From a virus: 64,000 nt of DNA. The stretch spans positions 99,356 through 163,355 of IMG/VR virus record IMGVR_UViG_3300012039_000002; one strand, 5' to 3'. Below the pieces are notes generated by a model. It saw nothing but the letters and a program-made list of their open reading frames with translations, had not been told where the DNA came from and made no database searches. Positions 7,912 through 48,530 of this stretch are shown here, piece after piece; the first letter of the stretch is position 1; each line of letters opens with the position of its first letter. Made by a program: the position numbers and the translations under genes.

Positions 7912-7912
7912 G

Positions 7913-8653: not shown

Positions 8654-8662
8654 GATAATGGA

Positions 8663-23200: not shown

Positions 23201-24838
23201 TTGAAAACTAACTTGTTAAAGATGATCTTCGTAAAGAAGAAGAATCTAGACTACTTTGATCTGCCTTGTGCAGACAAATTAGAAGACGTTAGAAGGGCAG
23301 TTGTCGATTTGCAGGCTATGGTTTTTTACCTGAATTCTGAACTGTCACAAGGCGTTGTGCTTTCAGAAGTTGTAAAGGTATCGAATAGAGAGTTTCTATC
23401 TAAATACTTAGGGTTAAAAGATAGCCATTTTGCGTCGGCTTCAGAGGACAAGATTAGCAATTACCTTAGAGTTACAGCTACTGACAGATATTTCGTGTTT
23501 AACTATTCTGATAACTTTTTCTTTAATTCTATAAACAAAGATCTCGAAGCAATGTATCGCCCTACTTGGACTGTTCAGTTGCGAATTTGTAGAGGGATTA
23601 TTTTTGATCGTGAAAATGGAGAGCTTGTTTCTTTCCCACTAGAAAAGATATTCAACGTAGGCGAATATAGAGATGGAGAGATTTCACGATTTGCTAAGAA
23701 ATTTGTTGATGTGCCGTCTCAGATGGCTGAAAAGCTTGATGGAATATTAATACAAGCGTTCTACGATAGGCAGAACGACGAAGTGCACTTTAGCACTCGA
23801 TCGCAGATCGATTATGACGACAATGGCTATATAGATACGGCACGTCGGCTAGCGAAACGAACTGGGCGCATTTCAGCGCTAAAAGATTTGCTAAGGCATA
23901 ACAAATCAGTGGCTTTTGAGCTTATTTCTCCCGATCACAGAGTTGTTATTGGATATGGCAAGAAATTTGGGCTGATACTTCATCATGTAAGAGATCTTAA
24001 AACATACAAGACTTTAGACTATATAGAGCTTCAGAAGGTGGCAAAGAGCTTGGGCTTTGCTTCTCCGACTACAGCTCATTTTAATAGCTTTGAGGAGCTC
24101 CTAGATTTTCAGAAGACGAACAAGCAGGCTGAAGGCTATATTGTTAAGTTTGAGGACGGATCCGCAGTTAAGGTTAAGACGAATTCTTATTTTGACAAGC
24201 TTAAGGGTTTGAGATCTCTATCATATGCTTCTATTGCTGAGTCCGTTCTTAATCGTGAAGATTGGAACATATTCAAATACGATAAGATTAAGTCTGAAGA
24301 GCTGTTTAGTGCTGCGAATCATTATCGCGCGAAAATAATTGACCAGTTCGGCGCGTTCGACAAATTCATCCAGCAATTCTGCGAAAAGCTGGTATGCTTT
24401 TCTGGATGGCAGGAATATGGCACTAGGGAAAAACTAGAGGCTATGACTGAATTCAATTACGCTTACATAGAGGCTGTAAACCAGCGCTCCCTCGATCCTG
24501 ACAAGGTCTCAAAAGAAGACTTTCGTATAGCAATCAACTATTGCATCAAATATATGTTGCTACACGATGAGAACGTCATCGATGCTTACAACAAGAAAGT
24601 CATGGAAATCACTGTAAAGGCGCTTCGCACTTCAGCATGGATGGGCGCCAAATTGGAAGAGCTTAATAGATCATACACAGCTGCTTCACTTAGAAAAGAT
24701 TTAGGCGGATCGGCCATGGGAGGCGGAAGCACTTCTATGGGCGGTCTTGGTTCTATAGTATCTGACATTGGGAAACCCATTGTCCCTATGAAGAAAGAAG
24801 AAAAGGACAAACGGAAGAAGGTGGAGGAATGGCACTAA
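23201..24838 (+). CDS. T4 Rnl1-type RNA ligase
   Basis: A 545-residue protein with the full nucleotidyltransferase motif set: motif I EKLDG with the adenylated Lys178; the upstream Arg131-Gly of RGIIFDRENGE; motif III FELISP at 239-244; motif IV EGYIVKF at 311-317; motif V VKVKT at 323-327. Rnl1 seals 5'-phosphate/3'-OH RNA breaks, as in T4 repair of anticodon-cleaved tRNA. It is longer than T4 Rnl1 (about 374 residues), with an extra C-terminal region ending in a Gly/Ser-rich stretch and a Lys/Glu-rich tail. TTG at 23201 has only a weak ribosome site; ATG 23222 is an alternative. RtcB and a CCA-adding enzyme lie in the same window. Confidence 0.9.
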   Translation: MKTNLLKMIFVKKKNLDYFDLPCADKLEDVRRAVVDLQAMVFYLNSELSQGVVLSEVVKVSNREFLSKYLGLKDSHFASASEDKISNYLRVTATDRYFVFNYSDNFFFNSINKDLEAMYRPTWTVQLRICRGIIFDRENGELVSFPLEKIFNVGEYRDGEISRFAKKFVDVPSQMAEKLDGILIQAFYDRQNDEVHFSTRSQIDYDDNGYIDTARRLAKRTGRISALKDLLRHNKSVAFELISPDHRVVIGYGKKFGLILHHVRDLKTYKTLDYIELQKVAKSLGFASPTTAHFNSFEELLDFQKTNKQAEGYIVKFEDGSAVKVKTNSYFDKLKGLRSLSYASIAESVLNREDWNIFKYDKIKSEELFSAANHYRAKIIDQFGAFDKFIQQFCEKLVCFSGWQEYGTREKLEAMTEFNYAYIEAVNQRSLDPDKVSKEDFRIAINYCIKYMLLHDENVIDAYNKKVMEITVKALRTSAWMGAKLEELNRSYTAASLRKDLGGSAMGGGSTSMGGLGSIVSDIGKPIVPMKKEEKDKRKKVEEWH

Positions 24839-25194
24839 TCGATCACTTGCAATGCGGAAGGGTCATCGTTTTCAACTCAATGCTTTTCAAGTTGCGATGG
24901 GCTTTCTGCATTAACTACTCGGCGGATGTTCAAATTATATATAGAGGCTTTTTCGGACTGAGAGCGATAGACAAGAAAACTTTCCTTGGGTTTGCAAGGA
25001 TAGTTGATGTGTTTGACTATATCGATAGGCCGCTTACCGACGCTGAAAAGTTTAAACTTAAGACGGCTCATAAAACTGGCATCATGAAGACTTGCGACAA
25101 TGTAGAGCAATACGTAGACAAGCTCTTCAAGAAAGCTGAAATAAAACTATTCGTAAACCCTGAAGGATGGATTCATGAAGATATCACTAAATAA
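24829..25194 (+). CDS. unknown 121-residue protein
   Basis: The ATG lies inside the last codons of the RNA ligase gene (10-bp overlap), so the two are probably co-translated. The protein starts MALIDHLQCGRVIVF and has mixed hydrophobic strands and a Lys-rich C-terminal half ending FVNPEGWIHEDITK. No family recognised. Confidence 0.55.
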   Translation: MALIDHLQCGRVIVFNSMLFKLRWAFCINYSADVQIIYRGFFGLRAIDKKTFLGFARIVDVFDYIDRPLTDAEKFKLKTAHKTGIMKTCDNVEQYVDKLFKKAEIKLFVNPEGWIHEDITK

Positions 25195-25690
25195 CATCAA
25201 GTTCGTTAGAAAAGCCCAGATGGGAACAGCGTCTGCAAGTTCTCGGCTTGGTCTTGAGCGCCCCACTCACAAGTACATTAAGCGGGAGAACTTGGGCAAT
25301 GGGGAATACAAGTATATCTACGAGGATGCCAAGGGGAAGTCTGCTCCCTCTTCTAAGGATACAGAAGCTATGGTTGCTGACTTCACGACTTCTCTCTCAC
25401 GGGACAAGATGTTCAAGAAGTACGCTCAATACTTCGATGCAAAGGACTACACAAATGTAGCTGGCGCTATCATGGCTCGTGGGAAAGATGCTACGCCACA
25501 GGCATTTCTCACGGAGATGCAATACGCCAACAAGCTGTTGGGCCACAAGACAAGTCGTTTTCTACCTACAGGCGTTGCTGCAAAGGAATATAAGAAGCTC
25601 TTCTCACAGGCCGGCAATAGAGTGTCTGAATACAATGCTAAGATTTCTAAGATTGAGGCGGAACTAACTTCTCCAAGCCGAGGTGAATAA
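25175..25690 (+). CDS. tag-bearing unknown protein (THKYIKR...YKYIYED)
   Basis: A 171-residue protein with two short shared signatures. Residues 1-13 (MKISLNNIKFVRK) resemble the start of the Nudix-ART protein at 29168. Residues about 31-53 carry the tag THKYIKRxxxxNGEYKYIYED, also seen at 29168 and 37629 and, weakly, at 25690. The remaining ~115 residues look helical. It has no catalytic motif; it may be an internal virion protein or effector whose tag directs packaging (inference). Confidence 0.6.
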   Translation: MKISLNNIKFVRKAQMGTASASSRLGLERPTHKYIKRENLGNGEYKYIYEDAKGKSAPSSKDTEAMVADFTTSLSRDKMFKKYAQYFDAKDYTNVAGAIMARGKDATPQAFLTEMQYANKLLGHKTSRFLPTGVAAKEYKKLFSQAGNRVSEYNAKISKIEAELTSPSRGE

Positions 25691-26511
25691 TGGACGGTTC
25701 ACTTGAAAGGAAAAGATCTGGCTCCAAGTTTCTACGGAAGAAGCTGACAGATGATGGGAAAGTTCGCTATATCTACAAAGAGTCCGAGCCTAGAGGGAAG
25801 AAAGCCGAAGAAGTCCCTCAAGACAAGAAACAACGCTTTATTCAGACTATTGACTCTACTGATAGAGGATTCAAAAACCTCTTCAGCGAAGCGTGCGATG
25901 AAATAGATGACATCCACTATGTTTGCATAAACTCAGGGTGCTCTTCGGTCCAGATGACTAATGACGTTGAGACGTTCTTTGATGTGTTGGATGTGCTGCC
26001 AGAATATCAGGAGAAAGATGTTTTCCGCTCTGCGTCGGGATGTTTTAATGTCAACAAGGGCAAGATTGCCTTTTGCTTAGACAACTTCCCTCAGGATATG
26101 TCGGAAACGATTAAGCAAGTCGTGATGCTACATGAGACTATGCATAGCTTTTTCTATGGAGCGCTCCGGTTAAAACACAAACAGCCTCTGACTGCTGACT
26201 CTTCAGATGACAAAATGGATAAGGATTACATTAAGAAAGCTGTCAAATTCGTTGACAGCTTTGGCAAAATAGATCAAAATATGCGCAAGACAGCTGAAGG
26301 TTCTGTTAAGGAAGTAAAGGGACAAGACAAAGAAACTCTATTGCTGAATCAGATTAGCGCAGCAATGATAAGTGAGTATGCGGCGATTAGCCCTGAAGAG
26401 CACTTCGCCGAAGCTGGTGCTTTCTATTTCATTCTACCCAATGTTCTAAAAACGAAAGAGGCAGAAGTCTACAAGGCTTTCAATGAATTTTTCGAGAAGT
26501 ATGAGGACTAG
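25690..26511 (+). CDS. zinc metallopeptidase with degenerate tag
   Basis: A 273-residue protein starting on the last base of the previous gene. Residues 12-34 (SKFLRKKLTDDGKVRYIYKE) are a degenerate copy of the KYIRR/KYIYxE tag. The peptidase core has HETMH at 148-152, then a long helical stretch and SPEEHFAEAGAFYF near 242-255, where the Glu would be the third zinc ligand. This arrangement resembles phage and toxin-type zincins. Its target is unknown; the tag and operon suggest it is delivered with the virion or matures virion proteins. Confidence 0.7.
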   Translation: MDGSLERKRSGSKFLRKKLTDDGKVRYIYKESEPRGKKAEEVPQDKKQRFIQTIDSTDRGFKNLFSEACDEIDDIHYVCINSGCSSVQMTNDVETFFDVLDVLPEYQEKDVFRSASGCFNVNKGKIAFCLDNFPQDMSETIKQVVMLHETMHSFFYGALRLKHKQPLTADSSDDKMDKDYIKKAVKFVDSFGKIDQNMRKTAEGSVKEVKGQDKETLLLNQISAAMISEYAAISPEEHFAEAGAFYFILPNVLKTKEAEVYKAFNEFFEKYED

Positions 26512-28838: not shown

Positions 28839-29187
28839 AATAGTTGACTGGGACAAGTTCCAGAGCATGACGCCCAGACAAAAATCTGAGATAAATACTT
28901 CGACTATGTTCTCTGAACAGCGCGAGCAGGACGAAGACGATGATTCAGAAAAGAATGTCGGATTGAAAAAGATGGAAGAAGAAGTCCCGATCGAGTGGCC
29001 CGACGAAACAGAGAAGTCTAAAGCAAGCTCTATTTATACCACGCCGGGAGCACTTGTTTCTAGAACTTCTGGCGGAAAAGAGGGCGTCAATTTGATGCAT
29101 GAAATCGATAAGTTTAAGAGAAAAGAACCCTCAGAATTGGATCCCAAAAAGCCTACAGAGGAAACAGATGCAAATAAAGTTCAATAA
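28831..29187 (+). CDS. small acidic unknown protein
   Basis: A 118-residue Glu/Lys/Ser-rich protein beginning MTKIVDWDKFQSMTPRQKSE and largely without hydrophobic core, so probably disordered. It overlaps the preceding gene by 8 bp and the start of the Nudix-ART gene by about 20 bp. Perhaps a linker or chaperone for its neighbours; function unknown. Confidence 0.5.
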   Translation: MTKIVDWDKFQSMTPRQKSEINTSTMFSEQREQDEDDDSEKNVGLKKMEEEVPIEWPDETEKSKASSIYTTPGALVSRTSGGKEGVNLMHEIDKFKRKEPSELDPKKPTEETDANKVQ

Positions 29188-31768
29188 CATAAAGTTCATT
29201 AGAAAAGACAAAACACTCTTTTCTAGTCCACATAAGACTATCATGGAACACGACCAGACTGGCTACGTGTATCTTGACAATGCCGAAGGCGTTGCTATTA
29301 TGCCCTACAAAATGGGAGCAAATGGTAAAGAAGTATTGATCCGTGACGAATATAACCCTTTGCACACCACAGTGATGTCGATTATCACTGGTCGTAAAGA
29401 CAAGGGTGAGACCTGGAGGCAGACAGCTAAAAGGGAATTAGAGGAAGAGGCGGGCATTGTAGTACAGGAAAGATGGTTTGAAGATCTTGGCACTATTCTA
29501 CCCAGCGGTGATCATAAGAATCCTGATATCTTCTGTATCGTGGACGTTACTGGCATGGCTCAAGGCAAGCCCAAGACAGACGGTTCTATATTTGAAAAGA
29601 AGTCTACGAATAGTTGGGTCTCTATTTACGATCTTCATCGTATAGTAAGAGAGCCTTCTAATGTTGACGCATATTTGCTTTCGGCTATTGTAAAGATGCT
29701 TGAATGGGCCGGGCTTATAGCACAGAAATCAGAAGAGTCTGATTTGCTTAAAGCTAAGAAGGGTGAGCAAAAGGCTGGTCACAAATATATCCGAAGAGAA
29801 GGCTCTGAAGGCAAGTATAAATACATCTATACAGAGCCAAAGGGAAAGACCGGCAAGAAGGAAGAGACTAAAGGAAAGAAGCCAACGATGGTTGAGCAGT
29901 TAGCTGCTCTCATTGGGAAGAAGTCGGGCGGCGAGGAAGAAGAAACTGTTAAGAAGCAAGACGATTGGGATGCTTGGCCAATTGCGCCCAAGGATCTGCC
30001 CGAATTTAGCAAGGGCGTGAGCGCGTCTCAATGGGTTTCTAATATTATCAGAATGGTTGACACAAACGTGGCTCAATATGTCTCTTCCATTGACGACGGC
30101 ACGCTTGAGCTTATGAATAGTCCCGACGCTAAGAAGGGCTATATAGATGAAGCGCTTAACATGATGTATGAAAAGAATCACAAGTATGCAGGCACAGAAT
30201 CGAATTGGAAAGACTTGAATGTTGAAAATAAGAAATTAGATCCAAGTGCCCAAAACGAAGTAAAGAAAGCTATGCTACAAATGTCAACGGCGCTGGGAAT
30301 TGTTAATCACACCACAGCAGTGCTTAATAGCAGTGTCGCTGCTAATATTCATAGCAATTTCGAGAGTAGAGTGAAAGCAGCTGATGCTAAAGAAAGCGCC
30401 ACTTATCCGTCTTTTGAAAAGCTGTCTGAACTCATGGGTGACATCAAGAAGTCCCTTAATGTCGCGGATAATGTAATTCAGGACACTAAATGGCTTCAAG
30501 GCAACGACCCTAAATTGGATTGGCTAAACGATGCTGTGTTTAATGCTGTAGATAAGCTGATGAAGACTAGAAACAGATTTGTAAAAGACACTTTTGGCAT
30601 GTTCATTGGCTTGATAAGTGATAAAATGGACACTATGGACGATGCTTATAGTATCGAATCTACAGCGTCTCTTATAAATAGCTTCCAGAAGTTCAAGGAA
30701 GACGGCATGTATTCAACTACTTTAGCTCGTGACAACAAGACATTCGCTAATCAGTGGAACATGAAACAAAAAGGAATTTATTCTGGCGCTTCAAGGTTCT
30801 CTGCTAATGCTACGGCCAAGGTTGTTGATAAGATACACAGTCTCGATGGCGTAGAATCTGACGTCGCCGTAAGTAGATTACTTACCAAGATCTCAGATCA
30901 AAGAGCGTTTTCATTTCTTTCAATGAATCGTGTGGGTGCTAATAATTTCCATATGTCAGAGCAAGCATTCTCATATGTCGCTGAGCACGGTTTGGATAAG
31001 TTCTATCAAGACATGATGTTTGTGGCTGGTGGCAGAAAGCTATTTGCTGGAGATAAGACTTCTATTACTAGAACTAGATTGAGTTTTGCTCTCGATATGA
31101 TCGATAAAGCTTACAAGGGCGACGACGTATTCAAACAGTCGGATAACGCTGATAGAGCGCTTGGAAAGCCGTTAGGAGACATGACTAGAGGCGGTGATAG
31201 CCTTATAGAAGTGGGAGCTTTTAATGTTGCAATAAATACCATTGTTTTACTGAATAAAAAGAGTCCTGCCGAATCAAAGAACGCAGCCTTTGTGAGAATG
31301 TGGTCGTCTGCTTCTCATAACTCGCTAATGTCCAACGCAGTGGAATCGTTTGTTGAGACTAAGGCAATAGACAGGGGCACTTACGTCAATTACCACCTGG
31401 CTTCCAATAGAGTTGTTGCTATAAGCAGGCCAGAAGTCAAAGAGGTGTTGTCCACCACGATTCAAGATGTATATGATCAGACGCAAAGCTCTTTAGGATC
31501 TGGTAAGACTCTGAAACTATACCGAGGCAATGGGAAGAGTGAGGTTAAGTCTGTGGCTTCGTCTTGGACTTCTGATAGAGGCGTAGTTGATAACTTTGGT
31601 CCCGTGATTACCGAAGCCGAGGTGCCGACTGAAGCAGTGCTGATTTATCACCACTCAAAGAATAGCAGCGACTGGTCTTATCCATATGAGCAGGAACACG
31701 TACTTGTCCCTGGAATACTACCTGTTGAGAAAAGAATAGTTGGCAATGTTATAGAAGGCGGCGATTAA
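29168..31768 (+). CDS. Nudix hydrolase fused to R-S-E ADP-ribosyltransferase, with internal tag
   Basis: Start at ATG 29168 is chosen over 29099: it follows AGAGGAAA, shortens the overlap, and gives MQIKFNNIKFIRK, like the start of the 25175 protein. Residues 40-180 are a Nudix domain with a perfect box (G75, E81, R89-E90, E93-E94, G96), the ADP-ribose/NAD-type pyrophosphatase fold. Residues 204-226 are the tag GHKYIRREG...YKYIYTEPKGK. A ~550-residue helical middle follows. The C-terminus is an ADP-ribosyltransferase: Arg786 in LYRG, SWTS at 799-802, and catalytic E841-Q-E843. It may ADP-ribosylate host proteins early in infection and clean up ADP-ribose or NAD-capped RNA. Confidence 0.85.
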   Translation: MQIKFNNIKFIRKDKTLFSSPHKTIMEHDQTGYVYLDNAEGVAIMPYKMGANGKEVLIRDEYNPLHTTVMSIITGRKDKGETWRQTAKRELEEEAGIVVQERWFEDLGTILPSGDHKNPDIFCIVDVTGMAQGKPKTDGSIFEKKSTNSWVSIYDLHRIVREPSNVDAYLLSAIVKMLEWAGLIAQKSEESDLLKAKKGEQKAGHKYIRREGSEGKYKYIYTEPKGKTGKKEETKGKKPTMVEQLAALIGKKSGGEEEETVKKQDDWDAWPIAPKDLPEFSKGVSASQWVSNIIRMVDTNVAQYVSSIDDGTLELMNSPDAKKGYIDEALNMMYEKNHKYAGTESNWKDLNVENKKLDPSAQNEVKKAMLQMSTALGIVNHTTAVLNSSVAANIHSNFESRVKAADAKESATYPSFEKLSELMGDIKKSLNVADNVIQDTKWLQGNDPKLDWLNDAVFNAVDKLMKTRNRFVKDTFGMFIGLISDKMDTMDDAYSIESTASLINSFQKFKEDGMYSTTLARDNKTFANQWNMKQKGIYSGASRFSANATAKVVDKIHSLDGVESDVAVSRLLTKISDQRAFSFLSMNRVGANNFHMSEQAFSYVAEHGLDKFYQDMMFVAGGRKLFAGDKTSITRTRLSFALDMIDKAYKGDDVFKQSDNADRALGKPLGDMTRGGDSLIEVGAFNVAINTIVLLNKKSPAESKNAAFVRMWSSASHNSLMSNAVESFVETKAIDRGTYVNYHLASNRVVAISRPEVKEVLSTTIQDVYDQTQSSLGSGKTLKLYRGNGKSEVKSVASSWTSDRGVVDNFGPVITEAEVPTEAVLIYHHSKNSSDWSYPYEQEHVLVPGILPVEKRIVGNVIEGGD

Positions 31769-32274
31769 TGATAAAGAAGCTTATTAAGAGTAGAAACTTT
31801 AGGTTCTTGCATCCAGAAGTTGTCGCCAAAGCTAACGAGCCTGAGTTACAGTCAATTCTTAAGGCCGTCTCCTATTTCAGGAACTTTGCTATTTTCAAGG
31901 CTCTCTATACAGCTCTTTATAAAGGCCGAAATCTTACTCTAGATCAATATCGTGGCCTTTATGATTTGCTAATCGACTATAGAAATACTCATCCAAAGGA
32001 TTATTTTGTAAGAGGTTTTAGTTCTGCGATACTGAAGTCTACTGCTATAAGCAAGAGCTCTAAAGCCATTTACGCTGTTATGGTTTATAATCAGCTATAC
32101 GAAGATGGGCTATTTAATGATCAAATTCACAAGTCAAATAAGCGACTAACCAAAGCTGTTGCAGCTTACTATTTGAGCAGCAAGCCCATTCATTTAGCTG
32201 TCATAAAGAAGACTAAGGTGAGCGTGATCAACAATAACAATCTTATAAAGTCTATCACAAAATGGAATCTTTAG
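31768..32274 (+). CDS. unknown basic protein
   Basis: A 168-residue Lys/Tyr-rich, probably helical protein (MIKKLIKSRNFRFLHPEV...YFRNFAIFKALYTALYKG). ATG shares a base with the stop of the Nudix-ART gene. It could assist its neighbour, but nothing in the sequence names a family. Confidence 0.5.
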   Translation: MIKKLIKSRNFRFLHPEVVAKANEPELQSILKAVSYFRNFAIFKALYTALYKGRNLTLDQYRGLYDLLIDYRNTHPKDYFVRGFSSAILKSTAISKSSKAIYAVMVYNQLYEDGLFNDQIHKSNKRLTKAVAAYYLSSKPIHLAVIKKTKVSVINNNNLIKSITKWNL

Positions 32275-32771
32275 CCACTACTCTCATCGTTCCGGACATG
32301 CGGACTAAAATAGCGGCTCTTAAACAATATATAAAGAGCGCCAATATGCACGCCACTAAAGCTCAATCATTCTTGCCTATGATTAAAGAAAAGAGGCTCT
32401 TGCCTCTCAATCACTCAAAATACTCAGGGAAAGTTGCGTACATCAATTGGATTACTAGAGGCAAGGCAATGTACTTGAATCTTAATGTATGTTACGATAA
32501 TGTTGGCAACATTACTAGTTTTGAGGTTATGACTAGAAATTTAAAGGTTAAGAAGCTATTTGATGTGAATAGGGTAAGAACGTTAGATGGCAAAATGTTT
32601 AAGCGGCATACAGAGCTTAAACGAAAGGAATCTCTTGTCTATACTGTGGACACTAAAAGCCTATATCCTGGCAGGCCTATAAAGCTTCTTGAGAATGGCC
32701 TTGAAAATTTTGCGTCTAGGGACAGAATTCTTCAAAAATTCGGTGTACAATTTGCTCCAATTGGAGTATAA
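32262..32771 (+). CDS. unknown basic protein
   Basis: A 169-residue basic protein overlapping the previous gene by 13 bp. It has mixed helix and strand (KVAYINWITRGKAMYLNLNVCYDN, SFEVMTRNLKVKKLFDVNRV). No motif recognised. Codon use and spacing match the neighbours, so it is likely a real gene of the same operon. Confidence 0.5.
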   Translation: MESLATTLIVPDMRTKIAALKQYIKSANMHATKAQSFLPMIKEKRLLPLNHSKYSGKVAYINWITRGKAMYLNLNVCYDNVGNITSFEVMTRNLKVKKLFDVNRVRTLDGKMFKRHTELKRKESLVYTVDTKSLYPGRPIKLLENGLENFASRDRILQKFGVQFAPIGV

Positions 32772-32782: not shown

Positions 32783-32947
32783 ATGGATCTCTTTGAAAAG
32801 TCTGTTGAAAAAGAAAAACAGCATGTACCATCACTTGAGATTTTTGCTCGTAAAAAGGGTAGAGCATCAAAGAGATACGGCACAAAGAAACCTGATGAGA
32901 AAGTAAACCAGAAAGATTTACTAATTGCATGGCGGGAGGATACGTGA
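32783..32947 (+). CDS. small basic protein
   Basis: A 54-residue Lys-rich protein (MDLFEKSVEKEKQHVPSLEI...AWREDT); ATG 32783 sits 6 bases after a clear GGAGG. It overlaps the SLOG gene start by 4 bp (GTGA). Function unknown. Confidence 0.5.
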   Translation: MDLFEKSVEKEKQHVPSLEIFARKKGRASKRYGTKKPDEKVNQKDLLIAWREDT

Positions 32948-33306
32948 GGCTATTAATTTGCGGAGACCGTAACTGGTCCGACGGTTCGGCAATTAGAGAA
33001 ATAATTGCAAGATTTCAGCCTGACGTAGTTATCGAGGGCGAAGCTAGAGGAGCTGACACTCTCGCTCGTTTGTCTGCGGAATCTGCTGGGATAGAAGTAT
33101 TGAGATTCCCTGCCGATTGGACTACGTATGGTAAAGCTGCCGGTCCTATTAGAAATTCCCAAATGCTTCGCGAAGGCAAGCCAGACGTTATAGTAGGATT
33201 TCATTACAACGTGAATGAATCTAAAGGCACAAGAGATATGCTAATTCGTGCTAAAAAGTCTGGCAAAGCAACATTCATATTCGACGGTGAACTTAAGGAA
33301 TTCTAA
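32944..33306 (+). CDS. SLOG-superfamily protein of the DUF2493/YspA type
   Basis: A 120-residue protein. GTG 32944 follows GGGAGGA and yields MRLLICGDRNWSDG, the usual start of this family; ATG 32929 has no ribosome site. Family motifs are clear: CGDRNW, VVIEGEARGADTLA, FPADWTTYGKAAGPIRN, QML, FH...KGTRDM. SLOG proteins bind nucleotide-derived ligands (NAD- or ADP-ribose-like molecules are proposed), and this branch is common in phages. With Nudix, ART and NADAR in the window, a nucleotide-signal role is attractive but inferred. Confidence 0.85.
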   Translation: MRLLICGDRNWSDGSAIREIIARFQPDVVIEGEARGADTLARLSAESAGIEVLRFPADWTTYGKAAGPIRNSQMLREGKPDVIVGFHYNVNESKGTRDMLIRAKKSGKATFIFDGELKEF

Positions 33307-35534: not shown

Positions 35535-35861
35535 ATGAAAATCTATACATATAACATAACGTCTCCGTACGCTTTTGTCGATAATTTTATTTTAGGGACG
35601 CCCGAGTGTTTTACTGAATATGATCCAATCGCGGATTTTGGCTACGGAGTTTCGGTTGATTCTGGTAAGACATACGCAACGAATAGGTCTGTTGACAAGT
35701 TAGCTAGAGCCGACAATACTACGCTACTTGGAGACGCAATTGTGGGTTCAACTGGTTTTGGCAACGATAATTTTGATAACCCTACGTTTTCAGCCATTAT
35801 AACATATCCCGTGCCACCATCGCCGGCGATCGAAAATATCTTTGGTAATATTATATGGTAA
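35535..35861 (+). CDS. short propeller-like protein with FGNIIW terminus
   Basis: A 108-residue protein (MKIYTYNITSPYAFVDNF...GVSVDSGKTYATNRSVDKLARAD) ending IENIFGNIIW. The same kind of ending (SFGNIVW) closes the 36797 protein. The body has one or two propeller-blade motifs. It may be the C-terminal part of a propeller split over 33307-35861. Confidence 0.5.
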   Translation: MKIYTYNITSPYAFVDNFILGTPECFTEYDPIADFGYGVSVDSGKTYATNRSVDKLARADNTTLLGDAIVGSTGFGNDNFDNPTFSAIITYPVPPSPAIENIFGNIIW

Positions 35862-36796: not shown

Positions 36797-37627
36797 ATGG
36801 CTTCGACGCTGTATATTGCTGACAGAGACAATTTTACAATCAAGAAATTTAGCGTCACTGATTTGTCTCTTGTAGACGAAGTAGCGACAGATGACAGTCG
36901 ATATGGTAGAGCGCTAACGATTATTGAGAGTATCGTTTATATGACGACAAACAATAATCGAATACAGGTTTTTACAGATAATCCGCTTACTCATGTTATG
37001 ACGTCGGGAACATATTCGGCAGGCACTCTGTATGCATTATCAGACGACGAAACAGTTCTATATTTAATTACAGATACCGGAAATGGAATACGACGAATAG
37101 ATAAAGACACTCTGCTATTTCTTACTGGATTCACAACACCAAAGGGATATACTATTAAAATATTCAACGGCAAGTCTTACAACAATACGTTAGCAGCACC
37201 ACAAACAGTAAATAAATACGACTTATCCGATTTCAATACGATAGAAGACTCATTTACAACACCAGATTCGGCACAGGCTTTAAGCTTTTACGCAAACGAC
37301 AATTATTTTATGGTATCAACTTCAGGAAACTTGTATCGCTGTGATCTTGCTACAATGACTTTCGAAGATTCGGTTACTAAATTGTCTCTATTCGGCAATA
37401 ACTATAATATAAAAGGCATTGTATGCGACAGCACTTATGTTTATGTATGTGGTAATCCCACCGAGGTTGGAGCCTCAAAGATTGCCAAGGTTCTTATTAG
37501 TGATCTGTCAATCGATCAATCAGTTAACGTGCTCGATACGGGACGGTTAGAATCTATAGAAATAATATTAGATGAAGCGCCGCCTTTTGTCGCTGGTCCG
37601 AATTCTTTTGGAAATATAGTGTGGTAA
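36797..37627 (+). CDS. beta-propeller protein with FGNIVW terminus
   Basis: A 276-residue protein opening STLYIADRDNFTIKKFSVTDLSLVDEV. Blade-like units recur (VYMTTNNNRIQVF, VLYLITDTGNGIRRID, YFMVSTSGNLYRCDL, YVYVCGNPTEVGASKIAKV). It ends NSFGNIVW, like the 35535 protein. Likely a virion propeller related to the 33307 protein. Confidence 0.6.
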   Translation: MASTLYIADRDNFTIKKFSVTDLSLVDEVATDDSRYGRALTIIESIVYMTTNNNRIQVFTDNPLTHVMTSGTYSAGTLYALSDDETVLYLITDTGNGIRRIDKDTLLFLTGFTTPKGYTIKIFNGKSYNNTLAAPQTVNKYDLSDFNTIEDSFTTPDSAQALSFYANDNYFMVSTSGNLYRCDLATMTFEDSVTKLSLFGNNYNIKGIVCDSTYVYVCGNPTEVGASKIAKVLISDLSIDQSVNVLDTGRLESIEIILDEAPPFVAGPNSFGNIVW

Positions 37628-37628: not shown

Positions 37629-39095
37629 ATGAAACCTGGCGACCAGAAGCCGAATCACAAGTACATTCGTAGAGTGCCTGATAGCAAGGGCGGTTGGAAG
37701 TACGTCTACGAAGAGTCGCAAGAAAGACTGCCTACGAAGCATGAGGAAGTTGTGGAAGCTAAAAAATACCCATTTAATATTGAGCTGGGCTTTAAGACTT
37801 TGGCAATCATTGACAAGCTTAAAGCTGCAGGACACGAGTCGTATGTTGTTGGCGGTTGTGTAAGAGACGCATTGCTTGGAAAACAGCCAAAAGACTTCGA
37901 TATCGTAACTTCAGCTAAGCCCAACCAGATTCAAGAGCTGTTTGGTATTCCCGGTTCAGTAGGTGCTAAGTTTGCTGTGAATATAGTTGACGGCCACGAA
38001 GTTGCGTCTTATAGAATTGATGATGAGGAAGCTACAAGCGCCAAAGAGACAGAAGTGTCTTTGGCTTCTTCAGTTGATGAAGACATGAGACGCAGAGATT
38101 TTACTGTAAATGCTCTTGTCTATGATCCAGAAACAAGACAAGTGTTTGATTTTGTTGGCGGTTTAGACGACGCTAAGAATAGAGTGCTTCGATTTGTGGG
38201 AGACCCTGACAAGAGAATCAAGCAAGATCCTATGAGAATGCTTCGTGCTATTCGTTTTGCTAATAGTAAGGACCTGTCTATTGACATAGAGTCTTTCAAG
38301 GCACTACAGCGAAACATGCCGCTGATTAAGAAAGAGGCACCTGAAAGAATATCTGCTGAAATAATGAAAATGTTTGAGTCAAGAGATACACTCACGGGTC
38401 TCTATCTGATGCTTACTACTGGCTTCTTAAAGGAAGTGATACCTGAGTTGTACGAGGGCTTTGAAGTTGAGCAAAACAAGCATCACGCTGAGTCGATTCT
38501 AATGCACAATATGCTTGCAGCTGACGCAATTAAAAAGAAAGATCCTGTGCTTAAGCTAGCGCTTTTGCTGCATGATGTGGGAAAAGTTAAGACAAAAGAG
38601 CTGAATCCTGAAACAGGCGACTACAACTTTTTAGGCCACGAAACTGTGGGTGCCGATATGGCTCGCAAGATCATGCGTCGCTTAAAGTTCTCAACAGAAC
38701 AAACAGATAAAGTTGACAATATTATTCGTCATCATATGTACTATTTTACTGATGAGACTAAAGACAAAACGATCAAGAAGTTTATGGCACTGCCAGAATT
38801 CAGAAACATACTGCGTGCAAGATTGGCTGATAGAAAAGCTAATTTAGCTAAAAAGGGAGTTCCCTACTCGTTTAAGAAGCTCATCAGAAAGATTAGGGTT
38901 ATTCAGACGACCAAACAGCCCGTGACAGTGAAAGACTTGGCTATAAATGGAAGAGACTTGATGGATTTGGGGCTTAAGCCAGGGCCGTTGTTTGGTAAGT
39001 TTCTCAACAACGCACTTGAACTAGTGCTTGAACAGCCAGAACAGAATCAAAAAGAGATTTTATTAGAGTTTGCTAAGAAGGAGTTCGGTCAATAA
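37629..39095 (+). CDS. cca: CCA-adding tRNA nucleotidyltransferase with N-terminal tag
   Basis: A 488-residue class II polymerase-beta enzyme. Core motifs: YVVGGCVRDALLG at 72-84; catalytic D89-F-D91; RRDFTVNAL at 155-163; DPMRMLRAIRFA at 200-211; ERISAEIMKM at 239-248. A C-terminal HD domain follows (LLLHDVGK, His315-Asp316; NIIRHHMYY). It adds or repairs the 3'-CCA end of tRNA. Unusually, residues 9-29 (NHKYIRR...GGWKYVYEES) are the same tag as in the 25175 and 29168 proteins, which ordinary CCA enzymes lack. No tRNA gene is visible in the window, so it more likely repairs damaged tRNA during infection. Confidence 0.92.
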   Translation: MKPGDQKPNHKYIRRVPDSKGGWKYVYEESQERLPTKHEEVVEAKKYPFNIELGFKTLAIIDKLKAAGHESYVVGGCVRDALLGKQPKDFDIVTSAKPNQIQELFGIPGSVGAKFAVNIVDGHEVASYRIDDEEATSAKETEVSLASSVDEDMRRRDFTVNALVYDPETRQVFDFVGGLDDAKNRVLRFVGDPDKRIKQDPMRMLRAIRFANSKDLSIDIESFKALQRNMPLIKKEAPERISAEIMKMFESRDTLTGLYLMLTTGFLKEVIPELYEGFEVEQNKHHAESILMHNMLAADAIKKKDPVLKLALLLHDVGKVKTKELNPETGDYNFLGHETVGADMARKIMRRLKFSTEQTDKVDNIIRHHMYYFTDETKDKTIKKFMALPEFRNILRARLADRKANLAKKGVPYSFKKLIRKIRVIQTTKQPVTVKDLAINGRDLMDLGLKPGPLFGKFLNNALELVLEQPEQNQKEILLEFAKKEFGQ

Positions 39096-43343: not shown

Positions 43344-43763
43344 ATGGAAGACATAAAAGGTTTCTTCGGCAAGAACAGATTTCTGTCGAATTTCTACCCT
43401 GCTGTGATAGAATACGAGGGTGTGAAATATCCAACAGTTGAACACGCTTATCAGGCGGCCAAAACTAAGGATTGGGTTCTCAGAGGACACATTTCGAGGA
43501 TGGAGACACCCTCGCAGGCTAAAAGGGCTGGTGCAACACTCAATCCGCCCGACTGGCATGAAAGAAGTCTCCAGACAATGGAGCTTCTTGTAAGGCTGAA
43601 GTTCACAACGCACACCAATCTCAAATACAAATTAATAGCTACAGGTCTTGCTGATCTTGAAGAGACTAATGAATGGCAAGACATGTTTTGGGGCGTGTGC
43701 AATGGGGTTGGTAGCAATCATCTTGGAAAGATTCTGATGAAGGTAAGAGGAGAGTTGTGGTAA
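43344..43763 (+). CDS. NADAR-domain protein (YbiA-like)
   Basis: A 139-residue protein with the NADAR core: GKNRFLSNFYPA, YEGVKYPTVEHAYQAAKT, QAKRAGATLNPPDWHE, MELLVRLKFT, LIATGLADLEETNEWQDMFWG, NHLGKILMKVR. NADAR proteins are N-glycosidases acting on ADP-ribose-type or riboflavin-pathway compounds. Some remove ADP-ribose from guanine and so reverse DarT-type toxins. Beside RtcB, and with a phage ART at 29168, this one may undo host defence or self ADP-ribosylation (inference). Confidence 0.88.
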   Translation: MEDIKGFFGKNRFLSNFYPAVIEYEGVKYPTVEHAYQAAKTKDWVLRGHISRMETPSQAKRAGATLNPPDWHERSLQTMELLVRLKFTTHTNLKYKLIATGLADLEETNEWQDMFWGVCNGVGSNHLGKILMKVRGELW

Positions 43764-44863
43764 TGCCTAATGCGGATAAAATAAAGACCCTGATTCCAAT
43801 GCATGAGATTGAGCAGGGTGCACAGCAACAGATATACGACAACGCAAACATTCCGTTTGTGAAGACTATAGCTGTCATGCCAGACTGTCATCAGGGATAC
43901 GATTTGCCCATTGGAGCTGTGGCTCTAGTCGAAGATCATATTTCGCCTTCGTATGTCGGTTATGACATAGGTTGCGGTATGATCTGCTACGAAATACCAC
44001 AAAGCAACATCGAAAACTTTCACACAAAAGATAGACAGCATCTCTTTGAGGAAATAAAAGAATGCATTCCCGTAGGCTTCAACGAACATGAGAATCCATA
44101 TGCTAAGTCTTTTTATTCGGCTTCTGGTGATAAAGAACTCACCGACAAAGTCAATGCTAAGTTGACTAAGCAGAATGGCACACTTGGTGGTGGCAATCAT
44201 TTCATTGAGCTTGGCTATAACGCAAACGGAAGCGTCTTCATTACCATACACTCAGGCTCCAGACGCCCTGGGTGGGAGATTGGCAATTGGTATATGAATG
44301 AAGCTAAGAAAGACAACCAGCTTTATCACAAGTTCTTCCACTTGGACTCTTCATTGGGTAAGGCTTATTTAGCTGACATGAACTTCGCTCTCGAGTTCGC
44401 TTTGGCTAATAGATTGGACATGCTTAAGGAAATCATCAATCTCATTACTGGTAGCAGGACTCTATTTGAGTATATAAATGAAAACCACAATCACGCTATA
44501 GTGTGGGACGCTGGTGTGCTCCACCGTAAGGGTGCTACACCGGCAGAAAAGGGTCAGCCTGGCGTTATACCTGGCTCAATGAAAACTGGAGTCTATATAA
44601 CTGAGGGCTTGGGCAACTGGAACTACCTTGTGTCAGCGTCTCATGGCGCTGGCCGTAAGATGTCTCGTGGCTTTGCTAAGAAGAACATTACGTTGGAGTC
44701 GTTTAAAGAACAGATGGAAGGTATCATTGCCAATGTAGATGTAACGACTCTAGACGAGGCACCTGACGCTTATAAGGATTTAGATTACGTAATTAACGCG
44801 CAGAAGGGCATAGTTGTGAATGTCGTCGACTTCATTCAACCCATAATCAACATCAAGGGGTGA
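43763..44863 (+). CDS. rtcB: RtcB-type RNA ligase
   Basis: A 366-residue protein; ATG 43763 overlaps the upstream TAA (TAATG). Hallmarks: DCHQGYDLPIGAV; YDIGCGM with the metal-binding Cys71; GGGNHFIEL with His146; TIHSGSR with His163; NHNH at 241-244; SASHGAGRKMSR, whose His294 is the expected GMP-accepting residue. RtcB joins 2',3'-cyclic phosphate or 3'-phosphate RNA to 5'-OH ends using GTP and Mn, repairing ribotoxin-cut tRNA or rRNA. It is somewhat shorter than E. coli RtcB (about 408 residues). It is chemically complementary to the Rnl1-type ligase at 23201. Confidence 0.95.
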   Translation: MPNADKIKTLIPMHEIEQGAQQQIYDNANIPFVKTIAVMPDCHQGYDLPIGAVALVEDHISPSYVGYDIGCGMICYEIPQSNIENFHTKDRQHLFEEIKECIPVGFNEHENPYAKSFYSASGDKELTDKVNAKLTKQNGTLGGGNHFIELGYNANGSVFITIHSGSRRPGWEIGNWYMNEAKKDNQLYHKFFHLDSSLGKAYLADMNFALEFALANRLDMLKEIINLITGSRTLFEYINENHNHAIVWDAGVLHRKGATPAEKGQPGVIPGSMKTGVYITEGLGNWNYLVSASHGAGRKMSRGFAKKNITLESFKEQMEGIIANVDVTTLDEAPDAYKDLDYVINAQKGIVVNVVDFIQPIINIKG

Positions 44864-45115: not shown

Positions 45116-46192
45116 ATGATCACACTCGCTGACAAGACGAATAAGTTCGTGTCTATGTTTGACCCTAAAACAGGATTCTATGTCCGTACAGGCATTATTG
45201 AGAACGGAAAAGACACGGGTGTCGATCCCTTCATGACTACTTACCCTCAGCTTATTGATGTCGGAATCATGGGCTCTTGTGAGTCGGGAAGACTAGGCCT
45301 GTGCAAACAAGCGGGAATTCAGTGCTACCAGGACGGTCTCAATAAGTCTCTCCCAGACATGACGCTCGACAACTTCAAGAAGATTGTGGATGAGTCTAAG
45401 GGCAAGGTATTTCAAATCGCTCTTGGTGGTAGAGGTAATCCCAACAAGCACGCTCAGTTCGGTGAAATCCTCAAATATTGTCGAGGCAACGGTATTGTGC
45501 CCAACTACACTACTTCAGGAATGAATCTCACGGATGAAGAGGTCGCTCTTACAAAGAAGTATTGTGGTGCTGTAGCGGTTTCATGGCAGAGAGCACAGCA
45601 TACTCTTGATGCTATCAGGATGTTTGTGAAGGCAGGTGTGAAGACTAACATCCACTATGTCCTTGGTAATTTCAGTATTGAAGAGGCGGTTGATAATCTT
45701 TATGGCATTGATTGCAATTTTCCCAAAGGTATCAATGCTGTAGTTTTCTTGGCTCATAAGCCCGTAGGTTTAGGCGATGAGAAGAATGTGTTGCGGGCTA
45801 ACGATCCTTTAGTGAAGAGATTCTTTGATCTCATTGATAACAATTCTTTCCCATTCAAGATTGGGTTTGATTCTTGCAGCGTTCCCGGCATCCTCAACTA
45901 CACTGCTAAGATAGATAAAGCGTCTATTGACACTTGTGAGGGTGGAAGATGGAGCACGTACATTTCATCTGACATGGTGGCTCTCCCATGCTCATTCGAC
46001 CAAGAACATAGGTGGGGTGTGCAGTTGGATGAGAATACTACAATTCAAAATGCGTGGAATGGAGCGTATTTTGAGGATTTTAGGAATTCCTTCCGTACTT
46101 CATGCAGAGGGTGTAAAGATGTGATAGAATGCAAGGGCGGTTGTCCAATTAAAAAGCAGGTTGTGCTTTGCGACAGGAAAGAGAAATCATGA
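45116..46192 (+). CDS. SPASM radical SAM enzyme with atypical cluster spacing
   Basis: A 358-residue protein; ATG behind GAGGAG. The expected CxxxCxxC is replaced by C55-x7-C63-x6-C70-Y, still placed after the first strand (QLIDVGIMGSC). The fold is supported by ALGGRGNPNKHAQFGEIL (GGE-like strand), NGIVPNYTTSG and VKTNIHYVLG. A SPASM-type C-terminus holds C274, C292, then C330-x2-C333-x5-C339-x3-C343 and C352, the classical spacing for auxiliary Fe-S clusters. SPASM enzymes usually modify peptides or proteins. Its TGA overlaps the ATG of the first NSSSSSF gene (ATGA), so the downstream proteins are the obvious candidate substrates. Confidence 0.82.
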   Translation: MITLADKTNKFVSMFDPKTGFYVRTGIIENGKDTGVDPFMTTYPQLIDVGIMGSCESGRLGLCKQAGIQCYQDGLNKSLPDMTLDNFKKIVDESKGKVFQIALGGRGNPNKHAQFGEILKYCRGNGIVPNYTTSGMNLTDEEVALTKKYCGAVAVSWQRAQHTLDAIRMFVKAGVKTNIHYVLGNFSIEEAVDNLYGIDCNFPKGINAVVFLAHKPVGLGDEKNVLRANDPLVKRFFDLIDNNSFPFKIGFDSCSVPGILNYTAKIDKASIDTCEGGRWSTYISSDMVALPCSFDQEHRWGVQLDENTTIQNAWNGAYFEDFRNSFRTSCRGCKDVIECKGGCPIKKQVVLCDRKEKS

Positions 46193-46596
46193 AAATTAGA
46201 CTCGATTTTGTAACTAATAGCTCTTCTTCGGCTTTCATAATCAAGAAGAAGAGGCTTACTGCCCGGCAGATATACATGATAAACAACCATGTGTATTTTG
46301 GCTCCCTCTTCAATGGTATCTATGCTAAGCTTGTGGGATCAGATCAGGCGCCATTCTATATGGACGAATGGAAGATTGAAGAGGATGAGGCTGAGATCCG
46401 TGGAGAAACTTCTATGGATAACTTTGGCATGGAAGAATTCTTTGAGCATATTGGCGTAGAAGATAAATTCGTCAAGTGGAGCGAAGATAATTATCATGAC
46501 TTAGACACGAAATACAAGATTCCTTGGCATGGCATGACAAATAAAGAGATTCACAAAAGAGTAGTGGCGGCCAACAAAAAGAAAAGTCTTAAGTGA
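46189..46596 (+). CDS. NSSSSSF-tag protein 1
   Basis: A 135-residue protein starting at ATG 46189, in a 4-bp overlap with the radical SAM stop. The N-terminal tag is MKIRLDFVTNSSSSAF, the most divergent of the six (Leu for Thr, Ala for the last Ser). The body contains IYMINNHVYFGSLFNG and EIRGETSMDNFGMEEFFEHIGVEDKFVKW; the last part aligns with the end of tag protein 4. Function unknown; probably a substrate or partner of the upstream enzyme. Confidence 0.75.
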   Translation: MKIRLDFVTNSSSSAFIIKKKRLTARQIYMINNHVYFGSLFNGIYAKLVGSDQAPFYMDEWKIEEDEAEIRGETSMDNFGMEEFFEHIGVEDKFVKWSEDNYHDLDTKYKIPWHGMTNKEIHKRVVAANKKKSLK

Positions 46597-46604
46597 GGTA
46601 AAGC

Positions 46605-46952
46605 ATGAAAATAAGAACAGACTTCGTTACAAATTCAAGTTCAAGCTCCTTCATCATAGCCGTAAAGTCAGATCTGACCAAAGCGGAAGCAAAGGACGTT
46701 GTAGATAAATATTTTAAGACGCAAATCGAAGAGCTTATGGGAAACGTAGATCGAGATACAGAATCGCTCGAAGAAGAAATCAAGGCAGATCTTGTTTCGA
46801 CAATTATGGAAGCTAAAAGCGGCATGAAGCTTGATGACTGGAGAGTTTCTGGCGGCGACGCGCGCTCTGATGAATACGACGCTTCTTGTGTGCTCCACAT
46901 GTCCGGTGAATTCAACAGCTCAAAGGTGAAGTTCAAGAATGTGGGGTGCTAA
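46605..46952 (+). CDS. NSSSSSF-tag protein 2
   Basis: A 115-residue protein with the tag MKIRTDFVTNSSSSSFIIAV. The body is helical and acidic (KAEAKDVVDKYFKTQIEELMGNVDRDTESLEEEIKADLV), ending in strand-like SGEFNSSKVKFKNVGC with a C-terminal Cys. The body is unrelated by eye to the other five. GGTAAAG ribosome site. Confidence 0.72.
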   Translation: MKIRTDFVTNSSSSSFIIAVKSDLTKAEAKDVVDKYFKTQIEELMGNVDRDTESLEEEIKADLVSTIMEAKSGMKLDDWRVSGGDARSDEYDASCVLHMSGEFNSSKVKFKNVGC

Positions 46953-47318
46953 ATGAAGGTCAGAACCGACTTCGTTACGAACTCGAGCAGCTCAAGTTTC
47001 ATTGTCGTTGCGAAAAACAAGAGTGCGCTCAAGACTTCCGTTACTATTCCCGTTGACTTTAACACTCTGGCGTCCAAAGAGATTAAGTCAAAGAAAGACG
47101 CTTTGGAATATAGCAAGGACAACGATCTCGACGCTGAAACAACTGAACGCATGCTTGCTGAAATAGAAAAGGGCAATTCGTTGTTTGATATTCATGTAAG
47201 TTCGGACGATGATGAGCCTGTTAGCAGATACATCCACGAAACAACCGAAGGGGATTATGAAGACGTTCGGCGCCTTCTCCCCGGTATGGTTGTGTTCAAG
47301 ACGGAGTATTCGTATTGA
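46953..47318 (+). CDS. NSSSSSF-tag protein 3
   Basis: A 121-residue protein whose ATG follows the previous stop directly. The tag is MKVRTDFVTNSSSSSFIVV. The acidic body (FNTLASKEIKSKKDALEYSKDNDLDAETTERMLAEIEKG..DIHVSSDDDEPVSRYIHETTEGDYEDVRRLLPGMV) is split here only for description. Unknown function; tight spacing argues for one operon and matched amounts. Confidence 0.7.
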   Translation: MKVRTDFVTNSSSSSFIVVAKNKSALKTSVTIPVDFNTLASKEIKSKKDALEYSKDNDLDAETTERMLAEIEKGNSLFDIHVSSDDDEPVSRYIHETTEGDYEDVRRLLPGMVVFKTEYSY

Positions 47319-47650
47319 AAATCAGAACTGATTTTGTCACGAATTCAAGCAGCTCAAGCTTTGTAATTGCTAAAGCTGCCGTAACTGAAGAGCAGATTCA
47401 GGCATTTAGAGGCTTGAATAACTTTTTGCGGAACAAGTATTTTGAACAAGGCCAAGACATTTGGCAACCAGGCTTTACTTCAAAAGAAGGCTTTGATTTT
47501 GATGCTGTCTGGTGTGGCGATTATTGGACTATAAGAGAAGACGAAAACTACATTGAAGGCTACACATCTATGGACAATGGCGACTTAGGTAAATTCATTA
47601 AGGAAATAGGCATCGACACTAAACTAATGAGGTTCTCTAATGAAGGTTAG
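47315..47650 (+). CDS. NSSSSSF-tag protein 4
   Basis: A 111-residue protein starting with TTG in a TTGA overlap with the previous stop. The tag is MKIRTDFVTNSSSSSFVIA. The C-terminal part (YWTIREDENYIEGYTSMDN...FIKEIGIDTKLMRFS) aligns with tag protein 1, so these two share a real body domain. Use of TTG at an ATG-rich locus shows that translation here depends on coupling. Confidence 0.72.
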   Translation: MKIRTDFVTNSSSSSFVIAKAAVTEEQIQAFRGLNNFLRNKYFEQGQDIWQPGFTSKEGFDFDAVWCGDYWTIREDENYIEGYTSMDNGDLGKFIKEIGIDTKLMRFSNEG

Positions 47651-48152
47651 GACTGATTTTGTGACCAACAGCTCTTCAAGCTCATTCATTGTGGCATTTG
47701 AAAAGGTGCCTGAGACCATTAGCGAGATGAAGAAGCTGCTTTTCAAAGAGAATGAGCTTAAGTTCGATTGCTTCCCATACTACGACGAGCTCTATTCTGC
47801 CAATGATATCGCTATCAAGATTATCAACGACATGCCAGGGCATGAAGTCAAGAAGGCATCTGATCTTCTCGATGTCATTGACGGCGGTGATGATTGCGAT
47901 GACTATACTACTATTCCAACGCCTAAGTTCCCTGAGTTTGTAAAAGACGAGAAGCTCCGCAATAAGCAGTGGAAGGCATATGAGGATCTTGCCAGCGCTA
48001 GGGCCAAAGACATCGCAAAGAACTTTATGACTAAGAACAAGGGCAAGAGAATTTTCACTTTTGAATATAGTGATCACGATCGTCTTGGCGCCGCCATTGA
48101 ACATGGTGGTATTCTTGAAAGACTGGACTGCATCAGAATATCTCGACACTAA
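47640..48152 (+). CDS. NSSSSSF-tag protein 5
   Basis: A 170-residue protein overlapping the previous gene by 11 bp. The tag is MKVRTDFVTNSSSSSFIVAF. It is the longest of the set. The body has KKLLFKENELKFDCFPYYDEL, an acidic DVIDGGDDCDDYTT, and a Lys-rich C-terminal half ending HDRLGAAIEHGGILERLDCIRISRH. Unknown function. Confidence 0.72.
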   Translation: MKVRTDFVTNSSSSSFIVAFEKVPETISEMKKLLFKENELKFDCFPYYDELYSANDIAIKIINDMPGHEVKKASDLLDVIDGGDDCDDYTTIPTPKFPEFVKDEKLRNKQWKAYEDLASARAKDIAKNFMTKNKGKRIFTFEYSDHDRLGAAIEHGGILERLDCIRISRH

Positions 48153-48167
48153 GAGGTGAGGTGAGGC

Positions 48168-48530
48168 ATGAAAATTAGAACTGATTTTGTAACTAACAGT
48201 AGCTCAAGTTCGTTTGTTGTGTTTGGCGTAGGTACAGATATCCTGAAGCTTAATATAACAGATGAGGAGCTTGAAGAGAAGTATGACGGTAGCATGAACG
48301 AATATCTTTACGAAAAAGCCGAAGGCACGTCTCTTAAGGCCGGCTCGGCTTATTATGATAGCGACGAGCACTCTGTAGGCCTCAGCCCTGAGACTTTGCT
48401 CAAGAAATTCGGTGACAGAAAAATCAGTGAAATTCCGCAAATAGTAGCTGAAGAGATTGAGAAAGCATTCGGTGTAAAAATCGACCCAAAGAAAGTGGGC
48501 TACATCGAAGAGGCAAGTTATAACGGGTGA
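48168..48530 (+). CDS. NSSSSSF-tag protein 6
   Basis: A 120-residue protein with the tag MKIRTDFVTNSSSSSFVVFG, behind GAGGTGAGGC. The body holds ITDEELEEKYDGSMNEYLYEKAEGTSLKAGSAY...HSVGLSPETLLKKFG and ends VGYIEEASYNG. It closes the tandem array. As in the other copies, the tag codons differ at almost every third position, so the peptide itself is under selection. Confidence 0.72.
   Translation: MKIRTDFVTNSSSSSFVVFGVGTDILKLNITDEELEEKYDGSMNEYLYEKAEGTSLKAGSAYYDSDEHSVGLSPETLLKKFGDRKISEIPQIVAEEIEKAFGVKIDPKKVGYIEEASYNG

What the first reader, a model, noticed from the sequence alone, without database searches (positions are those of the whole stretch)
29168..31768. Nudix hydrolase and ADP-ribosyltransferase in one polypeptide
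The Nudix box is perfect and the C-terminus has R, S-W-T-S and E-Q-E as in arginine-type ARTs. T4 keeps such functions in separate proteins (Alt/ModA and NudE). T4 ModB is known to attach RNA to proteins using NAD-capped RNA. A fusion could couple modification with removal of ADP-ribose, or with processing of NAD-capped RNA. The tag lies between the two domains, so the two halves may be separately delivered or cleaved.
Basis: partly seen in the sequence, partly recalled or inferred. Interest (0 to 1): 0.8.

Follow-up and report, generated by a model that had tools for sequence, protein, structure and literature searches.

The report
Phage Nudix–ADP-ribosyltransferase fusion protein
A tailed bacteriophage carries one long protein that joins an ADP-ribose-cutting (Nudix) enzyme to a probable ADP-ribose-attaching enzyme, and distant relatives keep the same fusion, so the phage probably uses both activities together against its host cell.

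Summary
ORF 29168-31768 (866 aa) has an N-terminal Nudix domain (Pfam E 5e-7, above cut-off) and a C-terminal R-S-E motif set: R786, ASSWT 797-801, E841-Q-E843. Four distinct sequences on five IMG/VR contigs (45-50% identical to the window's) keep the whole fusion, the catalytic Nudix REUxEE and all the ART residues. No split form was found. The Nudix part resembles ADP-ribose pyrophosphatases. The ART part has weak DRAT hits in 4 of 4 members, below Pfam's cut-off where checked. A low-confidence AlphaFold2 model finds mainly ART-superfamily structures (Z at most 4.0). So ART is likely, not proven. The inter-domain 'tag' is one of a family of about 30-aa hairpin-like modules at module boundaries of neighbouring phage enzymes; cleavage is untested. 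The virus has a contractile tail and also encodes NADAR, a SLOG (YAcAr) protein, RtcB, an RNA ligase and a CCA-adding enzyme. Best reading: a bifunctional, possibly virion-delivered effector whose ART modifies host macromolecules and whose Nudix removes free ADP-ribose or related signals. A Nudix-ART fusion was not described in the papers I could search; Nudix and ART domains separately fused into phage proteins are known. New variant of a known kind.

The parts
29168..31768 (+). Nudix-tag-helical-ART fusion gene, 866 aa
   Evidence: ORF; full-length relatives; fusion intact in 4 of 4 distinct sequences
29282..29725 (+). Nudix domain region (residues about 39-186), ADP-ribose-pyrophosphatase-like
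   Evidence: PF00293 residues 52-156 E 5e-7; PDB hits include ADP-ribose pyrophosphatases, E about 1.2e-4 to 1.6e-4
29390..29458 (+). Nudix box, residues 75-97
   Evidence: sequence; conservation
29768..29851 (+). tag, residues 201-228 (GHKYIRREGSEGKYKYIYTEP core), modelled at low confidence as a beta hairpin
   Evidence: tag HMM; secondary structure of low-confidence model
30017..31237 (+). helical middle region, residues 284-690, the least conserved part apart from the last residues
   Evidence: structure search gives only designed or repeat helical proteins at high Z
31238..31717 (+). ART-like domain, residues 691-850
   Evidence: DRAT weak hits 4 of 4; VIA-align rows mainly ART superfamily; motif
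31523..31525 (+). R786, candidate R of R-S-E
   Evidence: invariant 4 of 4
31556..31570 (+). A-S-S-W-T, residues 797-801, candidate S motif
   Evidence: invariant 4 of 4
31688..31696 (+). E841-Q-E843, candidate ExE
   Evidence: both Glu invariant 4 of 4
31768..32274 (+). downstream gene of unknown function, conserved order
32262..32771 (+). second downstream gene of unknown function, conserved order
32929..33306 (+). SLOG (YAcAr) protein, conserved third neighbour
   Evidence: PF10686 E 4.8e-12; present downstream in L002, L003, L004, L068
25175..25690 (+). tagged small protein, shares the N-terminal motif MxIxxNNIKFxRK with the fusion
25690..26511 (+). tagged M90-like metallopeptidase
   Evidence: PF06167 E 6.6e-7; tag
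37629..39095 (+). tagged CCA-adding enzyme (tRNA nucleotidyltransferase)
   Evidence: PF01743 E 4.9e-31; tag
43344..43763 (+). NADAR protein in the same virus
   Evidence: PF08719 E 1.8e-23; whole-record search

Best explanation
A phage effector with two enzymes on one chain. Shown: the gene, the fusion and its conservation, the Nudix family, and the R-S-E residues. Inferred: the C-terminal domain is an active mono-ADP-ribosyltransferase that moves ADP-ribose from NAD+ to a host macromolecule, probably on arginine because of the ExE pair. Inferred: the N-terminal Nudix cuts free ADP-ribose or an ADP-ribose-derived signal into AMP and phosphoribose, cleaning up the NADase by-product of the ART and blunting host ADP-ribose-based immune signals. 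Inferred: the protein is made with the structural genes and may be packaged and injected, as T4 Alt is. The tag joins modules.
For: Nudix above the Pfam cut-off in the window and matched by 4 of 4 members. Closest solved structures include ADP-ribose pyrophosphatases and NudF. R, ASSWT and ExE invariant in 4 of 4. DRAT hits in 4 of 4 ART domains, best E 3.2e-4. Of the 50 VIA-align rows shown, 46 are ARTs by title (PARP, tankyrase, pertussis S1, Tpt1 and the like); the other four are IcmQ and three CNFy rows, which I recall as ART-like. Fusion intact in 4 of 4 distinct sequences. SLOG neighbour conserved and NADAR in the same virus. The virus has portal, terminase, capsid, sheath and baseplate genes. 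Iyer et al. 2022 (PMC9503650; [quoted passage not shown]
Against: Both models have mean pLDDT below 50. VIA-align Z is at most 4.0, under the tool's own noise level, and Foldseek gave no E below 0.001 against PDB. DRAT stays below its curated cut-off in the window's domain (16.1 of 25 bits). The profile comparison with T4 Alt is not significant. No evidence shows packaging. A Nudix that attacks NAD+ would starve the ART.
Confidence: 0.5

Rival explanations
1. NAD-capped RNA handling: the ART attaches NAD-RNA to host proteins (RNAylation, as T4 ModB does) and the Nudix removes NAD caps.
For: T4 ModB does RNAylation (PMC10468400, passages). An RNA ligase, RtcB and a CCA-adding enzyme are encoded nearby, so RNA handling is a theme of the locus.
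Against: The Nudix part is closest to ADP-ribose pyrophosphatases and NudF; its NAD+ diphosphatase (NudC-type) match is weak (E 0.056). No RNA-binding domain was reported by the Pfam scans.
Confidence: 0.12
2. The ART-like domain has lost activity or serves as a binding module; the functional part is the Nudix.
For: Low model confidence; short spacing between R and S (R786 to S798) compared with T4 Alt.
Against: All candidate catalytic residues are invariant in 4 of 4 at 45-50% identity, while the helical middle has drifted (37-43% pairwise identity).
Confidence: 0.15
3. The C-terminal domain is not an ART at all and the motif is coincidental.
For: No Pfam, NCBIfam or PADLOC model passes for this domain; Foldseek against PDB has no E below 0.001.
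Against: Motif order, the P-G after ExE, weak DRAT hits in 4 of 4, and ART-dominated structure rows agree.
Confidence: 0.1
4. A self-limiting pair: the Nudix depletes NAD+ or ADP-ribose to turn the fused ART off, for example inside the virion or late in infection.
For: The NadM fusion pairs a NAD+-making domain with a Nudix that lowers NAD+ (PMC9503650, passages).
Against: No direct evidence; substrate unknown.
Confidence: 0.08

Closest known systems
Phage T4 Alt (R-S-E mono-ADP-ribosyltransferase, virion-injected)
   Same: LYR[GS], S-x-S-type and ExE-x-x-[LIV]-P-G motif order; both match one pattern; contractile-tailed phage
   Different: T4 Alt has no Nudix domain (recalled; not scanned here); profile comparison not significant; spacing between R and S is much shorter here
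DRAT, dinitrogenase reductase ADP-ribosyltransferase (PF07357)
   Same: Weak hits in 4 of 4 ART domains; in the window from S798 to about residue 829
   Different: Below the curated cut-off; only about 32 of 256 positions matched in the window
Phage Nudix proteins of the NAD+-ADPr network, incl. Nudix fused to MuF, portal or protease (Iyer 2022, PMC9503650, passages read)
   Same: Nudix in a contractile-tailed phage, fused into a larger protein, with NADAR and SLOG in the same genome
   Different: Here the partner is an ART-like domain, not a head protein
Polyvalent proteins (Iyer 2017, PMC5512222, passages read)
   Same: Several effector domains on one chain, ART among them
   Different: Their usual ARTs have an H-Y-D active site; this one has R-S-E
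ADP-ribose pyrophosphatases of the NudF/NUDT5 group
   Same: Among the best solved-structure matches of the Nudix domain (E about 1e-4 to 0.24)
   Different: Those chains are about 140-240 residues long; this one is fused to tag, helical region and ART

Membership tests
Nudix hydrolase superfamily | Match to PF00293 above the curated cut-off | tested here: met
   30.2 bits against 21.1 for the window protein; 4 of 4 members match
Nudix hydrolase superfamily | Nudix box GX5EX7REUXEEXGU | tested here: met
   Exact in the window; REUXEEXGU kept in 4 of 4; the first Glu is D in the other 3, with one extra residue
ADP-ribose pyrophosphatase group | Closest sequence relatives are ADP-ribose pyrophosphatases | tested here: inconclusive
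   PDB matches include ADP-ribose pyrophosphatases at E 1.6e-4 and NudF at 0.0066-0.0071; NCBIfam models far below cut-off, best NudE at 4.4e-4
ADP-ribosyltransferase, R-S-E clade | R, S-x-S-type and ExE residues in order | tested here: met
   Invariant in 4 of 4; pattern also hits T4 Alt
ADP-ribosyltransferase, R-S-E clade | ART fold | tested here: inconclusive
   Low-confidence model (pLDDT 49.8); VIA-align rows mainly ARTs but Z at most 4.0
ADP-ribosyltransferase, R-S-E clade | Transferase activity | not testable with these tools
   Needs a biochemical assay
DRAT (PF07357) | Curated cut-off of 25 bits | tested here: not met
   16.1 bits in the window's domain, 19.9 bits in L003's
T4 Alt/VIP2 family | Significant profile similarity to T4 Alt | tested here: inconclusive
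   hhalign probability 0.1 with only 4 sequences against 1
Polyvalent / virion-injected effector | Packaged in the virion | not testable with these tools
   Only context: contractile-tailed phage, tag shared with other enzymes

The most novel reading that the evidence does not exclude
The two domains act in series on the same target: the ART attaches ADP-ribose to a host protein and the fused Nudix trims it at once to phosphoribose, leaving a mark that host ADP-ribosyl hydrolases cannot recognise or remove. The logic would resemble that of the Legionella SidE effectors (recalled), where an ART and a phosphodiesterase share one chain.
Probability: 0.07. Interest if true: 0.85.

Novelty: new variant of a known kind. 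Interest (0 to 1): 0.5.

Why it matters
Phages use NAD+ and ADP-ribose chemistry both to take over the host and to defeat ADP-ribose-based immunity, usually with separate proteins. A conserved chain holding both a writer and an ADP-ribose-cutting enzyme makes it directly testable whether the two activities are coupled. The tag family also offers a handle: it marks a set of enzymes (RNA ligase, metallopeptidase, Nudix-ART, CCA-adding enzyme) in one phage lineage and may prove to be a packaging or assembly signal.

Tried and rejected
Distant relatives. Scans of viral contigs with the protein, the full alignment, the ART domain (two alignments) and the Nudix domain returned the same small family; the fourth distinct member came in through the SLOG neighbour. 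Both genome-contig scans found no relative. Terminase-based relatives gave records of other members of the lineage with no match to the fusion; most are short fragments, so absence says little.

Sequence hits in named phages. Full protein: 6 phage records, all in the Nudix part only; I read two of these (huge uncultured phages) and both are stand-alone Nudix ORFs of about 190 aa. ART domain alone: only noise; the Knocker match lies on the strand opposite the tape measure gene.

Structure. Full-length model: its searches returned only helical repeats and weak viral rows. BFVD's top row for the ART model, a phage protein named for a DEDDh domain (E 1.4e-3, prob 1.00), could not be read. CNFy and IcmQ rows are called ART-like from memory only.

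Tag. Short tblastn queries with a tag consensus found nothing in phages or plasmids; low-complexity filtering may explain this. Cleavage at the tag was considered and is untested.

Promoters and terminators: counts at or below the shuffled expectation for promoters (30 against 35.2) and near it for terminators (14 against 12.7), so no operon boundary is claimed.

Not in print: the listings showed no paper naming a Nudix-ART fusion; of the listed papers I opened only those cited in the report (PMC9503650, PMC5512222, PMC7824862, PMC10468400, PMC4680915 and PMC5389931, the last searched for fusion terms only). The 2015 natural history of ARTs is not held.

Full report
What is there. The window is bases 99356-163355 of a 163,355-base virus record. 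The ORF at 29168-31768 encodes 866 aa. Its ATG lies just after AGAGGA and overlaps the end of the preceding gene (stop at 29187). Relatives start at the corresponding methionine.

Conservation. Five IMG/VR contigs carry the fusion: one is identical to the window over the protein (L001), two give the same sequence (L003, L004), plus L002 and L068. That makes four distinct sequences; the other three are 49, 50 and 45% identical to the window's. In all four the Nudix, tag, middle and ART regions are in one ORF. Pairwise identity by region is 66% for the Nudix region, 70% for the post-Nudix/tag stretch, 37% and 43% for the two middle segments, 56% for the helices before the ART core and 54% for the ART core. 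The ends that carry the candidate active sites are thus kept better than the middle.

Nudix. PF00293 passes its cut-off in the window protein, and all four members match. The box is exact in the window; in the other three its first Glu is Asp and the loop is one residue longer, while REUxEExGU is kept. Solved relatives by sequence include ADP-ribose pyrophosphatases (8wv3, 9jax; 1.6e-4), a methanol dehydrogenase activator (8zr8; 1.2e-4) and NudF.

ART. Conserved in 4 of 4 are R786-G787-N788-G789, S798-S799-W800-T801, F810-G811, P820, E841, E843 and P848-G849; S802 is not conserved. DRAT hits occur in 4 of 4 but below the cut-off in the two members whose bit scores I saw. NCBIfam, PADLOC and sequence searches of the PDB gave nothing significant for this domain. 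The domain model has pLDDT 49.8 and strands and helices in an ART-like order around the R and ExE (my reading). Foldseek against PDB had no E below 0.001. VIA-align on Foldseek's 650 top chains gave Z at most 4.0, but 46 of 50 rows shown are ARTs by title, and the remaining four are IcmQ and three CNFy rows. I call the domain a probable ART.

Tag. A profile built from twelve tag peptides finds tags in the window's genes at 25175, 25690, 29168 and 37629, and in the relative G028 in the Nudix-ART, CCA-adding and 177-aa proteins, twice in an 819-aa ORF, and in an RNA ligase of 620 aa. The RNA-ligase tag was not in the training set (E 1.3e-6); the others were. The second tag in the 819-aa ORF precedes a metallopeptidase (M90-like, E 4.1e-4, below cut-off) that is a separate tagged gene in the window (E 6.6e-7). 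Outside this lineage's contigs only two hits at E 0.5 appeared among the 117 loci and the window then held. The tag therefore seems to mark module starts; whether it directs packaging or is cut is open.

Surroundings. The genes at 31768, 32262 and 32929 (SLOG, YAcAr) follow in the same order in L002, L003, L004 and L068, with extra ORFs inserted in L002. The virus also encodes NADAR (PF08719, 1.8e-23), RtcB (9.2e-77) and peptide deformylase (4.8e-41), an RNA ligase (3.6e-22) and a CCA-adding enzyme. Portal, terminase, major head protein, head protease, tail sheath and baseplate J proteins make it a contractile-tailed phage.

Mechanism. The most economical reading is a bifunctional effector: ADP-ribosylation of a host macromolecule by the ART and hydrolysis of free ADP-ribose or an ADP-ribose-derived signal by the Nudix. 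Iyer et al. 2022 (PMC9503650; abstract, section 27 and passages) argue that phage Nudix, NADAR and SLOG proteins counter soluble ADP-ribose signals and that phage ARTs are often packaged. [quoted passage not shown] The passages I read in these papers describe no ART fused to a Nudix; their figures are not held. A serial action on protein-bound ADP-ribose is possible in principle, since EcRppH and NudT16 do this, but a tested group of ADP-ribose pyrophosphatases did not (PMC4680915; abstract and one section).

Verdict. The name 'Nudix' is secure, 'ADP-ribosyltransferase' is probable, coupling and delivery are hypotheses.

Noticed in passing
window 43344-43763 and 43757-44863: NADAR protein overlapping an RtcB RNA ligase gene (PF08719 1.8e-23, PF01139 9.2e-77).
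   Followed up: partly
window 46168-48530: A run of small ORFs that share the N-terminus MK[IV]R.DFVTNSSSSSF with different bodies.
   Followed up: no
window 35535-35861 and 36797-37627; L003 10097-10360 and 13357-13683: Fibre-like or propeller-like ORFs end in a shared C-terminal peptide FG[NH][IV][IV]W, which might be an assembly signal.
   Followed up: no
window 2-14005: Very long GYSG-repeat, collagen-like proteins, probably tail fibres.
   Followed up: no
L068 1694-4153: One ORF with two tags joins an unknown module to the metallopeptidase that is a separate gene in the window.
   Followed up: partly
L002 and L003, between cluster genes: Extra ORFs that look by eye like GIY-YIG homing endonucleases are inserted between the conserved genes; no family search was run on them.
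   Followed up: no
window 25175-25690 and 29168-31768: Two genes share the N-terminal motif MxIxxNNIKF[VI]RK ahead of their tags.
   Followed up: no
window 23201-24838 and L114 11076-12938: RNA ligase (T4 Rnl1-type) lacks a recognised tag in the window but carries one in the relative.
   Followed up: partly
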